From: Desulfovibrionales bacterium
GTDB lineage: Bacteria > Desulfobacterota > QYQD01
Direction of reading: 5' to 3'
DNA: 64,000 nucleotides
Assembly: GCA_028715605.1 (NCBI GenBank)
Contig: JAQURM010000004.1
Span: 124,001-188,000, forward strand
This document shows positions 4,988 through 37,769 of this stretch, one piece after another (positions within the stretch are counted from its first letter, which is position 1; each line of letters starts with the position of its first letter). The notes below the pieces were generated by a model, which saw only the letters and a program-made list of their open reading frames with translations, was not told the DNA's origin and made no database searches. The position numbers and the translations under genes are program-made.

Positions 4988-5005
4988 CAGACTATTATAA
5001 ATAAG

Positions 5006-5057
5006 CCCTGGATAGGCTAGCTACCGAAAGGGCGGCTCCCTCGCCGCCCCTCCAGGG
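5006..5057 (+). ncRNA. Structured RNA or terminator-like hairpin
   Basis: A nested structure: outer stem CCCTGGA (5006-5012) with TCCAGGG (5051-5057), and inner stem GGGCGGC (5030-5036) with GCCGCCC (5043-5049) around the loop TCCCTC. A 17-base unpaired segment (TAGGCTAGCTACCGAAA) lies on the 5' side only. TTTT follows the outer stem, so it might act as a terminator. The asymmetric bulge is more than a simple terminator needs. I matched no known RNA family. Confidence 0.5.
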
Positions 5058-5083
5058 TTTTAAAATGAGGGACAGCAACTAAG

Positions 5084-25893: not shown

Positions 25894-25938
25894 TTGACAT
25901 GGTTATTTATGTGGATTACCATAGCTATGGTAATCCAC
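25894..25938 (+). promoter_or_regulatory. Toxin-antitoxin promoter with 28-bp palindromic operator
   Basis: TTGACA (25894-25899), a 17-base spacer and TACCAT (25917-25922) form a promoter. A perfect 28-bp palindrome (25911-25938), half-site GTGGATTACCATAG followed by its exact complement, covers the -10 box. Ribbon-helix-helix antitoxins bind such sites, so this is the likely autoregulatory operator. Confidence 0.8.
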
Positions 25939-25962
25939 ATACAGGGAGGGCCGATAGTTACT

Positions 25963-26196
25963 ATGAGAACTGTGCAGATGACACTCGATGACGATCTGGT
26001 AGAGGCGGTAGACCGTGCTGCGAAACGGCTTCACACATCACGATCGGCTTTTACCAGGGATGCGTTGCGTGATGCGCTCACGCGCTACAGTGTAGCAAGT
26101 CTCGAGCAGAAGCACCGCCGGGGATACAAGGCGCAACCCGTCAAGAAGGGCGAGTTCAGCTTGTGGGAAGATGAACAGGCGTGGGGGGGTGAATGA
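25963..26196 (+). CDS. Ribbon-helix-helix antitoxin
   Basis: 77 residues from ATG 25963, after AGGGAGGG. RTVQMTLDDDLVEAVDRAA is the beta strand and first helix of a CopG/MazE-type RHH DNA-binding domain, and RSAFTRDALRDAL the second helix. The C-terminal 30 residues are the likely toxin-binding tail. It overlaps the toxin gene by four bases (ATGA), the usual arrangement, and has its own palindromic operator upstream. Confidence 0.9.
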   Translation: MRTVQMTLDDDLVEAVDRAAKRLHTSRSAFTRDALRDALTRYSVASLEQKHRRGYKAQPVKKGEFSLWEDEQAWGGE

Positions 26197-26504
26197 AACG
26201 GGGAGAAGTTCGCTGGTACAAGTTCCTCCATCCTGATAAAAAGCGTCCCGTGCTCATACTGACGCGAGATTCCATTCTTGACTATCTCGGTGAAGTCACC
26301 ATAGCGCCTATTACTACCACCATCAGGGACATCCCAAGCGAGGTCTTTCTTTCTCGACAAGACGGGCTGCCTCACGATTGTGTTGTGAACTGTGATCATA
26401 TCCAAACTGTATCGAGAGGCAAGATAGGCTCACTCATCACAACTCTCCCGGCAAACAAGATGATTGAAGCCGGACGTGCCATCGCATTTGCACTGAATCT
26501 CTGA
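26193..26504 (+). CDS. MazF/PemK-family toxin (endoribonuclease)
   Basis: 103 residues. KRGEVRWYKFLHPDKKRPVLILTRD is represented by the family opening RGEVRW and the KRPVLILTRD strand; IAPITTTIRDIPSEV and NCDHIQTVSRGKIG are the other MazF core motifs. MazF enzymes cut mRNA at short sequences when the antitoxin is degraded. The arginine and threonine of the active site (R in KRP, T in APITTT) are present, so it is probably active. Confidence 0.9.
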   Translation: MKRGEVRWYKFLHPDKKRPVLILTRDSILDYLGEVTIAPITTTIRDIPSEVFLSRQDGLPHDCVVNCDHIQTVSRGKIGSLITTLPANKMIEAGRAIAFALNL

Positions 26505-28735: not shown

Positions 28736-30058
28736 TTAGAAAGAGTGGCCAGAGGCCCCTCCCACTCCTCCGACACACCAAGTACAGGCCCAACATCTGG
28801 CATAGGCGTTGTGAGCGTGACAGTTTAGACAGCTTCCAAGATTACCGCAGTGCGCGTTATGAACGTGGCAACACTGGCAAAATGCTCTGGAGTTTATGCT
28901 GCTCCAGATTGCAGGATCGGCTCCGTTTACCGACTTGCGAATGAGGAACGGATTGGGTGAGCCATGGGGCTCATGGCAGTCGGTACAGCAGAGGATGAAA
29001 TTAATGTAATTGGCTGTAAGGTAGGGGTCTTTTATAGATCCCCAGTTTCTAAGCGTAGGCACAGGCGGATCTCCGCTTGTGCCGCACGTTGCGTCAACCA
29101 TCCCATCCACGCCCCAGCAGCGCGTAACCGATCCATGGTAATCCGCTTTCAAGTTGTAGGTCCGCGCTGTTTCGGACCAGCCTATCCCATTCACATTTCT
29201 AATTAGATTCGAGCTGTAAATAACGTTAGTCGCGTTGTGACAGTCGGAGCAGAATGTCACGTAATCGGGGAGATTGGAGCCGTCGGTCGTAGCAGAAGCA
29301 TCCGGCTCATATGTATTTGTCGAGTTGTAGCGGTAGGGAGCCTGGTATTGCCCACCGTGGGCCGCGGCATAGTCGCTCATTTTCTCTCCGGCCGAGTCGC
29401 CCCAAATATTGTTGCGGTCTGTGGGCCTTACGATCGGGTAGCCGCGCGTGGAAAGGTGGGGATTATGGCAGGCGTTACACGGGTTTGATTCGTTGCCGAA
29501 GGTGTCCGGCCATTTTGTCTTTACAAAGTCAAGTACATCCTGGAGATTGTGGGAAGAGCCGGATACGGGGTTAAAGGCATCATAGATATTATTGGGTGTT
29601 GCGAGAGTTATATTACCCCCAAACCAGTAACTATAGTTATAGTTTGTTCGTTCAAAGGATACCTGGACTGAACCCGCCCCTTTATGGCAATAGTAGCAAA
29701 AGCCCTCTGTCTGACTGGTAAAATTATCCGCGAAGATGGCATATTTTGAGGCGCTTCCTCCGGCTGGATTAGGTTCTTCTCCATCAATACTGGCATGCTG
29801 TTCATGGCAGTGGCCACAATGGCCTTTGGTGTAACCAATGGCAGCGGTAGCGCTCCGGTTGACTCCGCAGCCGGTATTCCCATGGGCCGAGTTAAAGTAG
29901 GTACCGGCAAAGAGCGCTTCGGCCCCGGATAACAACAGGCCGAGACATAGGAGTATGACGCGGCAACCACCTGGGAACAATTTAAGACGCACGGAGCAGT
30001 GCATTGATGTTAGTCTGGAAAACTTTCTTGATATAAGCGTTGTTTTACTTATCGGCAT
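28736..30058 (-). CDS. Secreted multihaem c-type cytochrome, copy A
   Basis: 440 residues with a signal peptide (hydrophobic VILLCLGLLLSGAEALFA) and seven CxxCH haem-binding sites: CGHCH, CYYCH, CNACH, CSDCH, CTDCH, CQCCH, CLNCH. The protein ends CWACTWCVGG...GHSF, with a histidine-free CxxCxxC. It is probably a periplasmic or outer-surface electron carrier. The copy at 35300-36565 is very similar through the central 250 residues. ATG 30058 or the internal ATG at 30004 could be the start. The exact role is unknown. Confidence 0.85.
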   Translation of the reverse strand: MPISKTTLISRKFSRLTSMHCSVRLKLFPGGCRVILLCLGLLLSGAEALFAGTYFNSAHGNTGCGVNRSATAAIGYTKGHCGHCHEQHASIDGEEPNPAGGSASKYAIFADNFTSQTEGFCYYCHKGAGSVQVSFERTNYNYSYWFGGNITLATPNNIYDAFNPVSGSSHNLQDVLDFVKTKWPDTFGNESNPCNACHNPHLSTRGYPIVRPTDRNNIWGDSAGEKMSDYAAAHGGQYQAPYRYNSTNTYEPDASATTDGSNLPDYVTFCSDCHNATNVIYSSNLIRNVNGIGWSETARTYNLKADYHGSVTRCWGVDGMVDATCGTSGDPPVPTLRNWGSIKDPYLTANYINFILCCTDCHEPHGSPNPFLIRKSVNGADPAIWSSINSRAFCQCCHVHNAHCGNLGSCLNCHAHNAYARCWACTWCVGGVGGASGHSF

Positions 30059-30217
30059 GTTGGCTGAAAGTCAATAAAAAAGTGAATAAAGAATATTTCA
30101 TATGTGATCAGTGGAAAATAGTTGCGCTGGGGTCAAGTTCTTGCAGGCTTGCGCCGTAAAGTATGGATGAATATACATCCCTGATTGAACGGGCTGTCTG
30201 TCACCGTAGGAGGCGTT

Positions 30218-31144
30218 ATGAAGTCTGGCATTGTGTCTTTCTTTTTTCTTTTGGTTCTATGCTGTTACAGCGCCCCGTGTCTCGCTTTTGATCAAAATGC
30301 AGGTGGTAATGAGTGCCACCTGACCATACTGTACTCGGGCAATACATGGGGGCATGTCAAACCCTGTCCGGGTTGAGGCGATCGTATGCTGGGCGGTCTG
30401 GCCCGGCGGGCAGGGGCTATCAGGCAGATAAGGGAGCGCAGTAATTGTGTTTTATTGCTCGATGCCGGCGACAGCCTCTTTGGACGGTGCAAGTATTCCC
30501 CGGGTGAGTTGCCGCTGGCCGGGGAAAGGGCGGAATTCATCTTAGAAAGCTATCTGGACATGGGTTACCAGGCCATAAATATTGGCCTGGAAGACTGGGC
30601 GGATGGCGATTTTCTCATGGCCAGGATAAAGGGGAAAAAGTACCCTTTTGTAGCCGCAAATTTAAAAGGCACCGATCCGGCTCTAACTTTGCCTCCATCC
30701 TTCGTTGTCATAGATGTTTGTGGGTGTAGGGTAGGTGTCCTAGGCCTTATGAACGATCGAAGAGGACACGTTGAGGGACATCCAGATATTATAGTAAGTG
30801 ATGCCGGGATCGTGATTAGGGACATTGTTTCCAGGCTGAAGAAGGAGTGTTCCCTTGTGGTGATGCTGTCTAATCTGGGAACCAAGGTGGATACGGACAT
30901 CGCTAAAGAGATTGACGGCCTGGACATCATTATTGAAAGCGGAAGCGGCGCCTTATGCAAACCATGGAAGATAGAAGATGCCTACATATGTTCTCCTAAG
31001 CAGGAAGGCCACTGGTTGGGCCGCTTTGACGTAATCGTGACTCCAGGCGGTGGAATCAAGCAAGTCAGCCATCAGATATTGATACTCGATGAGAGCATTC
31101 CGGAAGATGAGAGAATACGCAAGGAAATAGAAAATAGATTTTAA
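30218..31144 (+). CDS. Probable selenoprotein, 5'-nucleotidase-like
   Basis: Two open frames that share one reading frame and are separated by a single TGA (30374-30376). Read through, they give 308 residues: signal peptide (MKSGIVSFFFLLVLCCYSA), then LTILYSGNTWGHVKPCPG-U-GDRMLGGLARRAGAI, with U53, and LLLDAGDSLFG, all in the order of UshA/5'-nucleotidase-type phosphoesterases. Eleven bases after the TGA a hairpin, GCTGGGC/GCCCGGC around the loop GGTCTG (30388-30407), matches the place and loop (GGUCU) of the E. coli fdhF SECIS. The start is ATG 30218 after TAGGAGG. Several metal ligands of the family are absent: NTWGH for NDTHG, and no GNHE. A nonsense mutation is the alternative. Confidence 0.7.
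30374..30407 (+). promoter_or_regulatory. In-frame UGA with SECIS-like hairpin
   Basis: TGA 30374-30376, 11 unpaired bases, seven-pair stem 30388-30394 with 30401-30407 (one G-U), and six-base loop GGTCTG at 30395-30400. Bacterial SECIS elements lie directly after the UGA with a short upper stem and a GU-bearing apical loop, as here. An opal stop with no purpose would not need this structure. Confidence 0.65.
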
Positions 31145-31238
31145 CTGCGGAGCAATCGTAACGTGTTTTATCAGGATAAGAGCCGGTTATTACCGGGGTA
31201 AGGGCCCAATAAAATGTAAAGGATTTGTGAGAGTTCGT

Positions 31239-34200
31239 CTAGAGCTCATAAAGAGTCCTCTGATGTAAAGAAGTCTTGATGGAACTCCCGCCGTATTTTC
31301 TTATTGTATCCATCAGTCGGAGTAAGGTATTCCTGGCGGGTCCCAGATGCGGATCCAGCTTTAGCGCCATTTTATAAAAATCCAAAGCCTTAGCCAATTG
31401 TCCCGTGGCCTCGTAACACATGCCCAGATTAAGATGGATGACTGCTGCATTCGGATCAAGAGCCAGAATCCTCAGCAGGGCCTCTTCGGCCTCTTCGAAA
31501 TCTCCGCCCTGCCAGTATAGATTTGCCAATACACTCAGGATCTGACAGTATTTCTGGTTCGCGTCCGGGCCTTTCTGAATTTTTTTTAGCTCTTTCAGAA
31601 GATTAAGTTCCATTAGCTCTCTTTTTAATGCGCGGTCTTCGGGATTGCTTTTGGCCATGGTCTGAAGTCCCTCTATGGCATGATCATACAATCCCTGAAT
31701 CTTATACAAACTGACCAGGTCCGGGAGATGGTCTTCACAGTATCCCACTGCTTTCTCAAGTTCCCGCGTGGCTTCTATAAACCGCCTTTGCTTCCAAAAA
31801 TCCAGAGCGCTGCTATAATTATGGATGCTCCGGTAAGGCGGAGGTCTCAGATTCCTTGGCTCCTTCAATCGGGCGGTAGCATAGGCTATGATGTCTTCAG
31901 CACTCGTACGCCCGCTTAACCGGTCCAGACATTTTGGGGCTACTCGGTTTGCCCGGTCTAATTCCAACACTTTTAGAAAGCCCTTTTTTGCCTTAGCGAA
32001 TTGTAAGGCATTTTCATAACAGGTAGCCATGTTGAGATGATTCATTATGGAATTGGGCTGAAGCCTTACCACTCCTTCCAATTCGGCCAGGGCTAAATCA
32101 AAGCTTCCCCTTTCCAGGTAGGCGAGCCCCAGCCTTTGTCTGGCTTCCGGACTATTGGGCAGATAGTTTACCATCCTTTTGACATAGATCAGGTTGAGCC
32201 CCTTTCTAATCTTTTCAGAAAGCCAGGGTACAGGCCCAAGTTTAGTTGCAATATCCAACTGCTCTACTGCTTCGTCAAACTTATTCAAACCGAAATAGGC
32301 CTTTGCCAGTCCGAAATGGGCATCAATGGATTTGGGTTCTGTTTCGAGGGTCTTCTTAAACCAACCTGTTGCTGCGGAAAAATCTTCAGCGTTCAAGCAG
32401 GAGAAGCCCAGATTCTGGTAGATGGTATAGTCTTTGGGATTTTCCGTTAAGGCCCTGAGCAGGATGGCCTTTGAATTATGCGAACAGCCGAGCATATCAC
32501 GGGCTACTTCAGACACCGGATTCAGTTCCAGTACTCGCCGGTACATCATATTTGCCAGGTGAAACTGACCGTCGAGTTCGAGGAGTCGTCCAGCCAGTAT
32601 ATAATCCCTCTCCATAATATAGCGTTTCAAGGCGAGATCACCGGGACCGGTCTTTAGATATCGAACTATATCGCCCCGCCTGACCAGAAGCTCTTGCAAG
32701 ATTCTTTTCACTCCCCGATGTCGTTCCACAGGGCCAAAGTATTTCTTGGCTGCTGCGTATTCCAGATAGGAATTATCATCCGTGTTGCATAGTCCCTTCT
32801 GCCCGATGAGCTGCAAAATACCTTCATTGTCTAACAAAAAGAAACTTAGCAACTGCCGACAATCGAGGACTGAGATGGCAGCCAGGTCCTCCCGAATCGC
32901 TTTCCGGTTGAAATGCTGTTCCAGTTTGCGCAAGTCTATGGAGAGAGGCTGCATCATTCCCATAAGGATGCACCATTCGTTGCGGCCAGCCGGTGTATGC
33001 CAGAGATACACGTGGGGGAAAACCGTTTTCATAGATCGGAGAATCACCTTGAAATCCTCCGGAGTAAGCTCGTAGAGAGGTGCCCAGGTAGAGAATATTC
33101 CACCAGTTCTGAGTTTCTCTTTGCAAAGGCGAAAGTATTCTACGGTATAAAGCGACCCGTTGCCGGCGATAGTTGGATGAATGGAATCAGAGAGTATAAC
33201 ATCGTATCTTCGGGTTCCTCTCACTAAAAAACTTCGCACATCATCTATGACCAAGTTCAGTTTGGACTTATCGAGGACCTTCTGATTCACATCCGTAAAA
33301 AAACCAACGGCGTCTATCACTTCCGGGGAAATTTCCACACTATCTACGTGGCCTATATTGTGCCGGGTTACGGAACAGGCTGTCTCACCGCTTCCAAACC
33401 CGATTTGCAGGATTTCCCGGGCCTGGCTATGTATCAGGAGCGGAATATGAGCCTGCAGCTTTTGAGATGTCCTGAACTTGAAGTCCGTCCCAGAGACATT
33501 TGCTCCATTTATGGCCAGTTGCAGAGAGTAGTCAGGCAACCGGTGCACGGTAACGGTTCCGCCGACCCCCTCCCTTGCGAAGACAGTCCTGATTTCTTCA
33601 TTCCCTTTAGAAAATATAGAGATAAAAGCGTCTTGATCCATCCAGAAGTAGCCGCCCAGAAACAAGAAGGCTGCGGTGACTTGTGCAAAAATTACCCTTA
33701 CTCTGCGATCCAGGCACCGCATTAGAATCAAAGCCGCTACGATGATGTTGAGCAAAGCTATGAAAATCAGACTCCGCCTTGTACCTATAACAGGCAAGAA
33801 AATCAGACCGGCCATGATGGCACCAAGGATGGCCCCGATCGTATTTGCCGAGTAAATTGTCCCGATTTTGTGCCCTATTTCCTTTAGATTGTCGGTATAG
33901 ATACGGCTTGCCATGGGGAAGGTGGCACCGAGAAAAACGGAGGGTGCGAAAACCAATGACAGACAGGCGAGGGCAAAATAGGTCATACTGCGCCAGTATG
34001 GATCAGGAATAAGTTCAACATAATCTTTGGCGAATTCCTGGAGAGAATTCAATCTCACGACTAAAGGAATCGAAAGGACAGAGATGAAGGCGAGCGTAAT
34101 TTGCAGTCCGGCGAGAGTTTGCCTGAGGGGTCTGATCTTGTCGGCCAGGAAACTCCCGATATAACTCCCCACGGCAAACCCCAGCAAAAAAAGCGTAAGC

Positions 34201-35045
34201 ATGGTTGAAAAGGTATATACCAGTACCCCTGGCGAGAAAAAGACCAGTACCCTGGTCCAGACTATTTCGTAAGCCAGGCCGGTAAAACCCGAAAGCCCTA
34301 TAGCCCAGACTATCATGTTGTCCGGTCCGAATTTGCTTTTCTGGTTACCATAGCTCATGCGCCCGGTTCTATTTGAAGAAGCGGTCGCCAATGGGATTTC
34401 GACGTTGCTGTATCTATGGAGACCAAACGAGAGTAGTCCGGCTATTGCGGCTACTCCAAAATTCATGCCGACTGTGAGATGCGTCGTGCCTTGGATACCA
34501 AAGACCTCTATGAGAAAGAAACCACCTATGAAGCAACCAACAACTGCGCCCAAGGTATTTGCCGCATAGAGTTCACCCGTGATGCGGCCAATCTTATCAT
34601 TACTGGTTGCAGCGAACCGGCACAGGATGGGAAGTGTCCCTCCCATTAAAGTAGTAGGAGCAAGGATCAAAATGAAACAGAAAACAATTTGAGCCAGCCG
34701 GAACGAAAAGGGAGTGTTTCCCATGAAGCGGCAGATCCATATATAGACCGGGATAAGGGCTGAGAAGAGAAAAGGCAGGCTAAGGGCCAGGAAGGCGATA
34801 GCTGCTTCGATAATGGCATAGGTCAGAAGCGGTCTGTTTTTCCGGTCGATAAGCTTGCCTAATTTATAGCTGCCTATAGCCAGCCCTGCCATGAATGCGG
34901 CCAGGATAATACTGGCGGCAAAAGTAGTATTTCCCAGAATCCGCGCCAGTATCTTCACCCACAATACTTCATAGATGAGGGCGCAGGTCCCGGAAAGAAA
35001 AAACAATACGTATACCGCCCGTCTAATCCATTCTCTGCCGGACAT
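31239..35045 (-). CDS. Membrane / spermidine-synthase-like / TPR fusion
   Basis: 1268 residues. Residues 1-460 hold about a dozen membrane helices in two halves that resemble MFS-type or SpeE-associated transporters. Residues 500-720 are a spermidine-synthase-like methyltransferase fold (LQIGFGSGETACSVTRHN, DVRSFLVRGTRRYDVILSD). Residues 850-1250 are TPR repeats (for example TIYQNLGFSCLNAEDFSAA, AVIHLNLGMCYEATGQLAKA). Such fusions are common in deltaproteobacteria, and their substrate is unknown. It is transcribed towards the selenoprotein gene and sits between two cytochrome genes, so a role in the same envelope system is possible. Confidence 0.8.
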   Translation of the reverse strand: MSGREWIRRAVYVLFFLSGTCALIYEVLWVKILARILGNTTFAASIILAAFMAGLAIGSYKLGKLIDRKNRPLLTYAIIEAAIAFLALSLPFLFSALIPVYIWICRFMGNTPFSFRLAQIVFCFILILAPTTLMGGTLPILCRFAATSNDKIGRITGELYAANTLGAVVGCFIGGFFLIEVFGIQGTTHLTVGMNFGVAAIAGLLSFGLHRYSNVEIPLATASSNRTGRMSYGNQKSKFGPDNMIVWAIGLSGFTGLAYEIVWTRVLVFFSPGVLVYTFSTMLTLFLLGFAVGSYIGSFLADKIRPLRQTLAGLQITLAFISVLSIPLVVRLNSLQEFAKDYVELIPDPYWRSMTYFALACLSLVFAPSVFLGATFPMASRIYTDNLKEIGHKIGTIYSANTIGAILGAIMAGLIFLPVIGTRRSLIFIALLNIIVAALILMRCLDRRVRVIFAQVTAAFLFLGGYFWMDQDAFISIFSKGNEEIRTVFAREGVGGTVTVHRLPDYSLQLAINGANVSGTDFKFRTSQKLQAHIPLLIHSQAREILQIGFGSGETACSVTRHNIGHVDSVEISPEVIDAVGFFTDVNQKVLDKSKLNLVIDDVRSFLVRGTRRYDVILSDSIHPTIAGNGSLYTVEYFRLCKEKLRTGGIFSTWAPLYELTPEDFKVILRSMKTVFPHVYLWHTPAGRNEWCILMGMMQPLSIDLRKLEQHFNRKAIREDLAAISVLDCRQLLSFFLLDNEGILQLIGQKGLCNTDDNSYLEYAAAKKYFGPVERHRGVKRILQELLVRRGDIVRYLKTGPGDLALKRYIMERDYILAGRLLELDGQFHLANMMYRRVLELNPVSEVARDMLGCSHNSKAILLRALTENPKDYTIYQNLGFSCLNAEDFSAATGWFKKTLETEPKSIDAHFGLAKAYFGLNKFDEAVEQLDIATKLGPVPWLSEKIRKGLNLIYVKRMVNYLPNSPEARQRLGLAYLERGSFDLALAELEGVVRLQPNSIMNHLNMATCYENALQFAKAKKGFLKVLELDRANRVAPKCLDRLSGRTSAEDIIAYATARLKEPRNLRPPPYRSIHNYSSALDFWKQRRFIEATRELEKAVGYCEDHLPDLVSLYKIQGLYDHAIEGLQTMAKSNPEDRALKRELMELNLLKELKKIQKGPDANQKYCQILSVLANLYWQGGDFEEAEEALLRILALDPNAAVIHLNLGMCYEATGQLAKALDFYKMALKLDPHLGPARNTLLRLMDTIRKYGGSSIKTSLHQRTLYEL

Positions 35046-35160
35046 AAGGTATCAGCAATAAGTAAAGTTCATCGACATCTTAAAGCCTGTCATATCTGTT
35101 TTTCGGCTTTTGTAAACTAATGGATAAAAGTTTAGTAAGCCCTTTTGTCCGGGCTTATGC

Positions 35161-35290
35161 ATGCGGGACTTACCCATTTTCTTGGCAGGAGAGCATTACG
35201 AGCGTGGCCAAGGAGAGGTTAATCATCGCAACGGCTCTTATGATCGTAATTTTACCTTAAAAGGAATTGGTGAGGTACAAGCTAAATCAG
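35161..35290 (+). pseudogene. IS256-family transposase, N-terminal fragment
   Basis: Encodes GEHYERGQGEVNHRNGSYDR and TLKGIGEVQAKS, the N-terminal block of Mutator/IS256 transposases. The match stops after about 40 residues, where the end of cytochrome copy B begins. It belongs to the same IS group as the fragment at 26590-26885, which lies beyond the other cytochrome copy. Confidence 0.7.
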
Positions 35291-35299
35291 TTGGAGGTG

Positions 35300-36565
35300 C
35301 TAAAATGAATGTCCGTGAACTCCGCCCGCTCCTACGCACCAGGTGCAGGCCCAACACCTGACGTAGGCGGTGTGATAATGGCAGTTAAGGCAAGACCCTG
35401 TGCCGCCACAATGGGAATTGTGGTTATGGCAGGCGAGGCAAAGGGATCTGGAATGTGGAGCGCTCCAACTCGCTACAGTGACCCCGTTGACGGATTTTCG
35501 GAGAAGATAGGGACTGGGCGACCCATGCGGTTCATGACAGTCGGTACAACAGAGGATGAAATTAATGTAATTGGCCGCATGGTAAGGGTCTTTCAGGCTG
35601 CCCCAGTTGGAACAGCCCGGCTCTGCACATCCGCATCCTTGGTCGGTAGTGTTCCCATCCACACCAAAACAGCGGGTGATGGACCCGTGATAATCACCGG
35701 GCAGGTAACATGTTCGCTGCGTTTGACCAAAATCGACTTTTTTGAGGTTCCTGCCCAGTGTCGTACTATAGATGTCATTTGTCGCATTGTGACAATCAGA
35801 GCAAAAGGTCACATAATCCGGCAGATTAGAACCATCGGTAGTGGACGAGCCATCAGGTTCATAGGTGGAGGTGGTATTATAGCGGTATGGGGCATGATAC
35901 TGCCCGCCATGGGCAGTGGCATAATCACTCATTTTCTCCCCGGATTCGTCTCCCCAAATGTTATTTCGATCAGTTGGTCTTACAATGGGACCACAGCGTT
36001 TGGCCAGATGCGGATTGTGACAGGCGTTACAGGGATTGGATTCGTTGCCGAAGGTGTCCGGCCACTTTGTCTTTACAAAGTCAAGTACATCCTGGAGATT
36101 GTGGGAAGAGCCGGATACGGGGTTAAAGGTATCATAGATATTATTAGGTGTGGCGAGTGTCGTATTTCCCCCAAACCAGTAACTATAGCTATAATTTGTC
36201 CGGTCGAAGGATACCTGCACCGAACCCGCCCCTTTATGGCAATAGTAGCAAAAGCCCTCTGTCTGACTGGTAAAATTATCCGCGAAGATGGCATATTTTG
36301 AGGCGCTTCCTCCGGCTGGATTAGGCTCTTCTCCATCAATACTGCCATGCTGTTCGTGGCAGTGGCCACAATGGCCTTGGGTGTAACCAATGGTAGCGGT
36401 CGCGCTCCGGTTGACCCCATAACTAGTATTTCCATGGGCCGAGTTAAGGTAGGTACCGGCAAAAAGTGGAAGGGACTTGCACAGGAATATGCTGAGACAA
36501 AGAGAAAGGGCACAGACCGGGAGGCTCAACCATAGTTTCTTACGACGCGGCACTATAACCCTCAC
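35300..36565 (-). CDS. Secreted multihaem c-type cytochrome, copy B
   Basis: 421 residues: signal peptide (LSLPVCALSLCLSIFLCKS) and seven CxxCH sites (CGHCH, CYYCH, CNACH, CSDCH, CTDCH, CLACH, CLNCH), ending CWACTWCVG...GHSF. From GTYLNSAHGNT to the CSDCH region it is nearly identical to copy A (28736-30058), including long identical DNA stretches, while the signal peptide and the part after CSDCH differ more. This points to a fairly recent tandem duplication or gene conversion. The start is probably GTG 36565. It likely carries electrons across the periplasm or at the cell surface. Confidence 0.85.
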   Translation of the reverse strand: MRVIVPRRKKLWLSLPVCALSLCLSIFLCKSLPLFAGTYLNSAHGNTSYGVNRSATATIGYTQGHCGHCHEQHGSIDGEEPNPAGGSASKYAIFADNFTSQTEGFCYYCHKGAGSVQVSFDRTNYSYSYWFGGNTTLATPNNIYDTFNPVSGSSHNLQDVLDFVKTKWPDTFGNESNPCNACHNPHLAKRCGPIVRPTDRNNIWGDESGEKMSDYATAHGGQYHAPYRYNTTSTYEPDGSSTTDGSNLPDYVTFCSDCHNATNDIYSTTLGRNLKKVDFGQTQRTCYLPGDYHGSITRCFGVDGNTTDQGCGCAEPGCSNWGSLKDPYHAANYINFILCCTDCHEPHGSPSPYLLRKSVNGVTVASWSAPHSRSLCLACHNHNSHCGGTGSCLNCHYHTAYVRCWACTWCVGAGGVHGHSF

Positions 36566-36644: not shown

Positions 36645-37769
36645 CTAGAGCTGATCGTCCTTTGCGGTATGGCAGACGTAGCACCCGGTTTCCTTTGCCA
36701 TGTTTTCGTAATTCCACCTTAGCATGTCAGGATAAGGGCTGCCATGGGCCCGGTGACAGGAGAGGCACATGACCCTGTCCACTCCCGGGGTTACGGTGCC
36801 GGAAACGATACTTACAACCGGACGGGAGACCGGCGTCTGGGGATTATAGGCGGTGTAGGCGGCATATTCGCCCCCGTTGGGTATCTCGGTATCTCCGGCC
36901 GGATGTCTCAGCCAGCTTCCGGCCGCATCCCGGTTGCGGTTCTGCAGGTCCCAACTGTGATAGTCCCGGTGACACCCGGCGCAGAAGTCGCTGATACCCA
37001 TAGGATTTGCAGAGCCCGGAGAGCATGGAGCAGCGGGTTTATCCGCGTCCCGGTACTCATTGTGATCTGCCTGGCCCACCGTCAGTTCCCAGTCAGGGTC
37101 TTCAATCCCTTCCACTCCCGGTCGGCTGGAATGCGGCGGGATATCCCATACCCAGCTCGGCCTGCCCAGGAAGCGATAACACCCGTTTTCTTCTTTTACC
37201 ACGCCGCCCGGAGTCTGGTCCGGGGCGTGATGTCTGGGCACATGGCAACCTATACACCCATTGCCCTGGATAGGATAATGGAACCAGTCGTATCCGGGGC
37301 CAAGCCGGATGCTGGCGAGAGATGCGTGGCATCCGCCGAATCCGCAGCCGACGCCTGTTTCCGAGGAACCCGGCGCCGAAGATAGGGTTTGATCCACGCT
37401 TATCACATTGTGCCCGTAATTGTCGCCGTTATGTTGAACGTAGTAGAAGTTTCCCCCAGCCGTCATCTGCGCGGGTTCAACCGTATTGTAAACAATAGGG
37501 ATCGTACTCTCCCCAAGTGGCTTTGTCGGGGAACCGCCGGTTGAGGAGTGGCAGCCAATGCACGTTGTGTTCAGCAAGTTGTAGCCCGGACCCCCGCGCT
37601 TTGCACTTTCCGTGTATATTTCCGCACCGTTTTGCGAATTGTGCATGGTGTGGCAATTCGCACAGGCGCCTTTTACAGACGCCCAACTTGCTGCAGGAAT
37701 AAACAGCAAAAGGGCCGATAAGAGAAGCAGGATCATACAAACATGGTTTTTTGAAGAAGTCAGACGCAT
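36645..37769 (-). CDS. Secreted multihaem cytochrome with CX4CH site
   Basis: 374 residues with signal peptide (ILLLLSALLLFIPAASWA). Six CxxCH sites are seen (CANCH, two CIGCH, CAGCH, CLSCH, CYVCH), and one wider CGFGGCH that fits a CX4CH haem site. The opening VKGACANCHTMHNSQNG and the MCLSCHRAHGSPYPDMLRW segment are typical of periplasmic cytochromes of the doubled-CXXCH type. It is unrelated in detail to copies A and B but adjacent to B, so probably part of the same electron-transfer chain. ATG 37769 may be too early: a sigma-54-like site lies 14 bases before it, which would favour ATG 37736. Confidence 0.8.
   Translation of the reverse strand: MRLTSSKNHVCMILLLLSALLLFIPAASWASVKGACANCHTMHNSQNGAEIYTESAKRGGPGYNLLNTTCIGCHSSTGGSPTKPLGESTIPIVYNTVEPAQMTAGGNFYYVQHNGDNYGHNVISVDQTLSSAPGSSETGVGCGFGGCHASLASIRLGPGYDWFHYPIQGNGCIGCHVPRHHAPDQTPGGVVKEENGCYRFLGRPSWVWDIPPHSSRPGVEGIEDPDWELTVGQADHNEYRDADKPAAPCSPGSANPMGISDFCAGCHRDYHSWDLQNRNRDAAGSWLRHPAGDTEIPNGGEYAAYTAYNPQTPVSRPVVSIVSGTVTPGVDRVMCLSCHRAHGSPYPDMLRWNYENMAKETGCYVCHTAKDDQL

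What the first reader, a model, noticed from the sequence alone, without database searches (positions are those of the whole stretch)
30218..31144. Probable new selenoprotein: 5'-nucleotidase-like protein with in-frame UGA
One TGA separates two parts of a single conserved protein in the same frame (CPG-U-G, then LGGLARRA). Eleven bases downstream is a seven-pair hairpin with loop GGUCUG, matching the distance and loop of known bacterial SECIS elements. The signal peptide indicates an exported selenoprotein.
Basis: partly seen in the sequence, partly recalled or inferred. Interest (0 to 1): 0.82.

Follow-up and report, generated by a model that had tools for sequence, protein, structure and literature searches.

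The report
UshA-like selenoprotein beside multiheme cytochromes
A Desulfobacterota bacterium carries a probably secreted protein whose UGA "stop" is very likely read as selenocysteine; it belongs to an already described but uncharacterised selenoprotein group that has the fold of a nucleotide-cutting enzyme but has lost its metal-binding residues, so it probably does redox chemistry instead.

Summary
Window 30218-31144(+) is a 308-codon gene with one in-frame UGA (30374-30376), a CPGU motif and a hairpin with loop GGUCUG 11 nt downstream. The genome has selA, selB, selD and a UCA-anticodon tRNA-Sec. Of 147 aligned homologues, 103 have UGA in exactly this column; most other members of the family proper have Cys. 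A same-genus ortholog (80% identity) keeps UGA, hairpin and purifying selection on both sides. Across homologues the hairpin shows synonymous-codon constraint and a compensatory pair. Sec insertion is very likely (about 0.96).

It is not a new selenoprotein family: UshA-like selenoproteins (CxU) were reported by 2008 and a CxxU "family 2" is in NCBIfam. This protein scores below both curated cut-offs; it is a single-domain, heme-free CxxU variant.

"5'-Nucleotidase" describes only the fold. All but one of the aligned metal-site residues and the catalytic His are gone, and the nucleotide-binding domain is absent. Relatives fused to tetraheme cytochrome c and a conserved multiheme-cytochrome neighbourhood suggest a periplasmic Cys-x-x-Sec redox protein (inference, about 0.5). 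In a related clade the gene is followed by a B12/radical SAM gene and selA.

The parts
30208..30213 (+). Shine-Dalgarno-like AGGAGG
   Evidence: sequence
30218..31144 (+). UshA-like selenoprotein gene, 308 aa with Sec53, TAA stop
   Evidence: ortholog L004 with dN/dS 0.29 before and 0.24 after the UGA
30218..30286 (+). probable signal peptide, residues 1-23 (by eye; cleavage near A23 assumed)
   Evidence: translation; inference
30365..30376 (+). Cys50-Pro-Gly-Sec53 (CxxU) motif; UGA at 30374-30376
   Evidence: UGA in the same column in 103 homologues
30387..30408 (+). bacterial SECIS-type hairpin in the mRNA, loop GGUCUG at 30395-30400
   Evidence: model constraints from PMC13188914
28736..30058 (-). 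multiheme c-type cytochrome (7 CXXCH), divergent neighbour; context, possible electron partner
   Evidence: an ortholog adjoins the selenoprotein in G001 (L060)
35300..36565 (-). second 7-CXXCH cytochrome, similar to the first; context
36645..37769 (-). 6-CXXCH cytochrome; context

Best explanation
The gene encodes an exported selenoprotein. The UGA at codon 53 is decoded by SelB with Sec-tRNA-Sec, directed by the hairpin at 30387-30408, giving a 308-aa protein with a Cys50-x-x-Sec53 pair (inferred from very strong comparative evidence, about 0.96). It belongs to the UshA-like selenoprotein superfamily, in its single-domain, heme-free CxxU branch near NCBIfam 'UshA-like family 2' (about 0.9). 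The fold is the N-terminal metallophosphatase domain of 5'-nucleotidases, but the metal site is lost, so it is most likely not a phosphoesterase (about 0.85). The most likely role is a periplasmic redox protein that uses the Cys/Sec selenenyl-sulfide couple and exchanges electrons with multiheme c-type cytochromes (about 0.5, inference). The confidence given refers to the first three steps together.
For: SelA, SelB, SelD and tRNA-Sec(UCA) in the genome. UGA in the same column in 103 homologues, Cys in most other members of the family proper. dN/dS 0.29/0.24 before/after the UGA. Loop codons GGC-GGU and stem covariation. NCBIfam matches to two UshA-like (seleno)protein models. Tree placement in a CxxU clade holding true family 2 members. 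AlphaFold2 model pTM 0.82, Foldseek to CD73/UshA/SoxB N-domains. Metal ligands lost across the group. Tetraheme Cytochrome_C554 fusions in CxU relatives and conserved multiheme neighbours.
Against: No direct proof of Sec (no labelling or mass spectrometry). The single-sequence hairpin statistics are modest. Scores lie below both curated cut-offs. The cytochrome link is association only: opposite strands, no shown interaction, and other CxxU relatives have different neighbours.
Confidence: 0.82

Rival explanations
1. UGA is an ordinary stop: a 52-aa exported peptide is made and the 252-aa ORF from ATG 30386 is translated separately by re-initiation (TGAGGCGATCGTATG offers a GAGG just upstream of that ATG).
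For: The sequence offers such a start, and a gene caller would report this ORF.
Against: Only 6 of 103 UGA homologues have an ATG within 7 codons after the UGA; homologues with Cys in the column are one continuous protein; both parts form one predicted domain and are under the same selection; the downstream part would lack a signal peptide.
Confidence: 0.03
2. It is an active metallophosphoesterase in which Sec53/Cys50 act as metal ligands or modulators near the old active site, with an altered substrate.
For: Fold retained; D85 retained; the Sec loop follows the former NDxH metal motif in sequence.
Against: The GNHE Asn and His are each kept in 2 of 103 UGA forms and no UGA form keeps six ligands; the C-terminal nucleotide-binding domain is missing.
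Confidence: 0.12
3. Pseudogene or sequencing error: the UGA is a nonsense mutation.
For: A single nonsense-like codon.
Against: The same UGA occurs in an independent same-genus genome at 86% nucleotide identity with dN/dS 0.24-0.29 and in about 100 others.
Confidence: 0.005

Closest known systems
UshA-like selenoprotein, CxU (COG0737; NCBIfam NF041198 UshA_like_PCGU; PMC2398784, PMC13188914)
   Same: Homologous over residues 22-283 at 165.6 bits; Sec in the same column; metal site degenerate; the genome's own paralog L003 is of the CxU type.
   Different: CxxU instead of CxU; no C-terminal tetraheme domain; below the 275-bit cut-off.
UshA-like (seleno)protein family 2, CxxU (NCBIfam NF049981; PMC13188914 table)
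   Same: CxxU motif, single domain, no heme, same clade in the tree (SH-aLRT 89).
   Different: 84.5 bits against a cut-off of 140; only the N-terminal 84 positions give the best stretch; true members (L171-L175) form a separate clade with a different middle region.
5'-nucleotidases (UshA, CD73)
   Same: Fold of the N-terminal metallophosphatase domain; GG.ARR and DAGD motifs.
   Different: Metal ligands and catalytic His lost; no C-terminal nucleotide-binding domain.
SoxB thiosulfohydrolase (TIGR04486)
   Same: Weak profile match, 55 bits, and fold match, Foldseek rank 47.
   Different: Far below the 550-bit cut-off; metal site missing.

Membership tests
bacterial selenoprotein | in-frame UGA conserved in homologues and aligned with Cys in others | tested here: met
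   103 UGA rows and 26 Cys rows in the column, 4 or more of the latter being non-family nucleotidases
bacterial selenoprotein | bSECIS hairpin 16-37 nt downstream with G in the first two loop positions | tested here: met
   loop at +18, GGUCUG, 8 pairs; family-wide codon and pair conservation
bacterial selenoprotein | selA, selB, selC, selD in the genome | tested here: met
bacterial selenoprotein | Se in the protein (75Se or mass spectrometry) | not testable with these tools
   needs an experiment
NF041198 UshA-like (seleno)protein | score above the curated cut-off of 275 bits | tested here: not met
   165.6 bits; the profile is 519 positions long, the protein 308 aa
NF041198 UshA-like (seleno)protein | CxU motif | tested here: not met
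   CPGU (CxxU)
NF049981 UshA-like selenoprotein family 2 | CxxU motif | tested here: met
   CPGU
NF049981 UshA-like selenoprotein family 2 | score above the curated cut-off of 140 bits | tested here: not met
   84.5 bits; 58.8 in the genome scan
5'-nucleotidase (UshA/CD73) | dinuclear metal ligands and catalytic His | tested here: not met
   one of the aligned ligand positions kept, catalytic His replaced by Glu
5'-nucleotidase (UshA/CD73) | metallophosphatase fold of the N-terminal domain | tested here: met
   Foldseek E down to 2.2e-20, TM-score 0.75 on the query
5'-nucleotidase (UshA/CD73) | C-terminal nucleotide-binding domain | tested here: not met
   308 aa, no Pfam match; targets covered only in part (TMt about 0.45)

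The most novel reading that the evidence does not exclude
The whole UshA-like selenoprotein superfamily is a metallophosphatase scaffold that lost its metal site and was rebuilt around a Cys/Sec pair as a periplasmic redox enzyme wired to multiheme cytochromes: fused to a tetraheme domain in many CxU forms, and in the CxxU branch working with separate cytochromes or, in some lineages, with formate dehydrogenase and the sel genes.
Probability: 0.4. Interest if true: 0.6.

Novelty: new variant of a known kind. Interest (0 to 1): 0.4.

Why it matters
UshA-like proteins are among the commoner bacterial selenoproteins, and the 2008 survey named them as one of only three major families without a conserved Cys-based redox motif (PMC2398784). 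I found no functional study of them in the library searched. Showing that Sec goes with loss of the phosphatase site, and with heme domains or multiheme loci, turns "nucleotidase" into a testable redox hypothesis. Practically, a standard gene caller would see only a truncated 252-aa ORF, and homology transfer would name it a nucleotidase.

Tried and rejected
Viral contigs: no match. Folding z-scores as a SECIS test are weak for single sequences, so I relied on codon choice and pair covariation. selA co-occurrence was not informative because selA is in 355 of 395 genomes of the phylum. Rejected: pseudogene, split gene with ordinary stop, active 5'-nucleotidase. UGA read as Trp was considered unlikely: no aligned homologue has Trp in the column. 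Stem pairs 6 and 7 lose significance with one sequence per family, so only pair 4 and the loop codons are claimed after correction for relatedness.

Full report
Observation. Window 30218-31144(+) starts with ATG behind AGGAGG, runs 308 codons with a single TGA at 30374-30376 and ends in TAA. It fits the published bSECIS constraints (PMC13188914). Exactly one TGA and no other stop in 308 codons has probability about 3e-7 by base composition. The hairpin taken alone is not compelling: z -1.06, synonymous-shuffle p about 0.08, and 2-5% of all TGAs in the window have a similar one.

Machinery. The genome (2.56 Mb, 97.5% complete) has SelA on C1, SelB on C1, SelD on C3 with its own in-frame TGA, and a tRNA-Sec with anticodon TCA on C3. 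A second UshA-like gene on C3 (L003, 458 aa open frame, PCGUG, 31% identical) also has one TGA.

Homologues. Of 148 relatives, 87 have a match, and of 395 genomes of the phylum 97 have one at E 1e-20 or better. Named relatives are a Syntrophaceae, a Desulfarculaceae and another deltaproteobacterial MAG, so I read the phylum as Desulfobacterota (inference). After alignment, 103 of 147 rows have a UGA in exactly the column of U53 and 26 have Cys there; at least four of these Cys rows are outside the family proper, and most of the remaining rows are ordinary 5'-nucleotidases with NDxH and GNHE motifs. One family member (L014) has Arg in the column. The motif before the UGA is CxU (PCGU), CxxU (CPGU, CPTU, CPSU, CHTU) or, rarely, without Cys. 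The same-genus ortholog (L004, 80% identity) has the same UGA and hairpin; dN/dS is 0.29 for codons 1-52 and 0.24 for 54-308, so both parts are under similar selection.

SECIS evidence. The hairpin overlaps the conserved Gly59-Gly60-Leu61. In UGA forms these Gly codons are GGC in 83/103 and GGU in 80/103, against 31% and 19% elsewhere in the same genes. With one sequence per family, GGU is found in 20 of 28 (p about 2e-9), but also in 5 of 8 families of Cys forms, so the contrast between Sec and Cys forms is suggestive rather than clean. In the full set, stem pairs 4, 6 and 7 are paired far more often than shuffled columns allow in UGA forms and not in Cys forms; pair 4 (G-C alternating with U-A) survives the one-per-family test, pairs 6 and 7 do not.

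What the protein is. Pfam gives nothing. NCBIfam gives NF041198 UshA-like (seleno)protein at 165.6 bits (cut-off 275), NF049981 UshA-like family 2 at 84.5 (cut-off 140) and SoxB at 55. The literature lists UshA-like selenoproteins with CxU by 2008 (PMC2398784) and a CxxU family 2 known from GenBank annotation (PMC13188914). In a tree of 145 rows the window and its ortholog fall in a 23-row, almost wholly CxxU clade that also holds the true family 2 members (SH-aLRT 89), but on a long branch of their own. The AlphaFold2 model (pLDDT 80, pTM 0.82) matches the N-terminal domain of CD73, UshA and SoxB with E down to 2e-20; the C-terminal domain of these enzymes is absent.

Why not a nucleotidase. 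Aligned to the metal-site positions, the window protein has N42, W44, D85, L124, E125 (catalytic His position), N219, G242 and G244: one of these is kept. Across 103 UGA forms the GNHE Asn and His are each kept in 2, the NDxH His in 8 and the second GGHxH His in 1; none keeps the six positions tested together, while 14 of 16 homologues with neither Sec nor Cys in the column do. Loss of the metal site is therefore a property of the whole selenoprotein group, not of this member. The identification of the positions rests on motif alignment, not on a superposition.

Why redox. A Cys-x-x-Sec pair is a usual arrangement of thiol/selenol oxidoreductases (general knowledge). Most of the CxU relatives read in full end in a domain with four CXXCH motifs, which Pfam calls Cytochrome_C554. 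The CxxU relatives read in full, like the window protein, have none. The window gene lies among multiheme cytochromes (7, 7 and 6 CXXCH motifs), and in the same-genus genome it lies directly between a 7-motif and a 6-motif cytochrome that are 81-94% identical to those of the window. This is association only: the strands are opposite and no interaction is shown.

A second context. In about ten genomes, mainly of one family (f8, which includes the Syntrophaceae record), the heme-free CxxU gene is followed by a TIGR04190-type B12/radical SAM gene and selA (the radical SAM identity was scanned in L183 and L184 and read by similarity in the others). In L183, L184 and L185 formate dehydrogenase lies upstream; an fdhE-like gene is confirmed in L183 and read by similarity in L185. 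The window genome has its selA elsewhere and no close relative of the radical SAM protein.

Verdict. A real selenoprotein gene by all comparative tests, correctly spotted from raw sequence. It is a new variant within a known but uncharacterised superfamily, not a new family, and probably not a nucleotidase. Interest is moderate.

Noticed in passing
L183, L184, L185, L186, L187, L188, L189, L190, L191 (mainly family f8, and G278): Conserved gene order UshA-like CxxU selenoprotein - B12/radical SAM protein (TIGR04190 in L183) - selA, with formate dehydrogenase upstream in L183, L184 and L185 and an fdhE-like gene in L183. This suggests a link between this UshA-like branch and Sec synthesis or formate dehydrogenase maturation.
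   Followed up: partly
G000:C3:234208-235134 (L036): selD of this genome has one in-frame TGA, so SelD is probably itself a selenoprotein here.
   Followed up: no
G000:C3:38672-39514 (L003): A second UshA-like selenoprotein gene of the CxU type in the same genome, with a C-terminal four-CXXCH Cytochrome_C554 domain.
   Followed up: partly
window 28736-36565: The 7-CXXCH cytochrome gene is present in two similar copies flanking the selenoprotein and a 1268-aa spermidine synthase-like/TPR protein; the same-genus genome G001 has one copy and lacks the 1268-aa gene at this place.
   Followed up: partly
window 5005-5071 (+): Match to Rfam int-alpA RNA (RF02996, 43.3 bits), possibly marking an integrative element.
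   Followed up: no
window 25894-26504 (+): Two small overlapping ORFs that look by eye like a ribbon-helix-helix antitoxin and a MazF/PemK-like toxin (not scanned).
   Followed up: no
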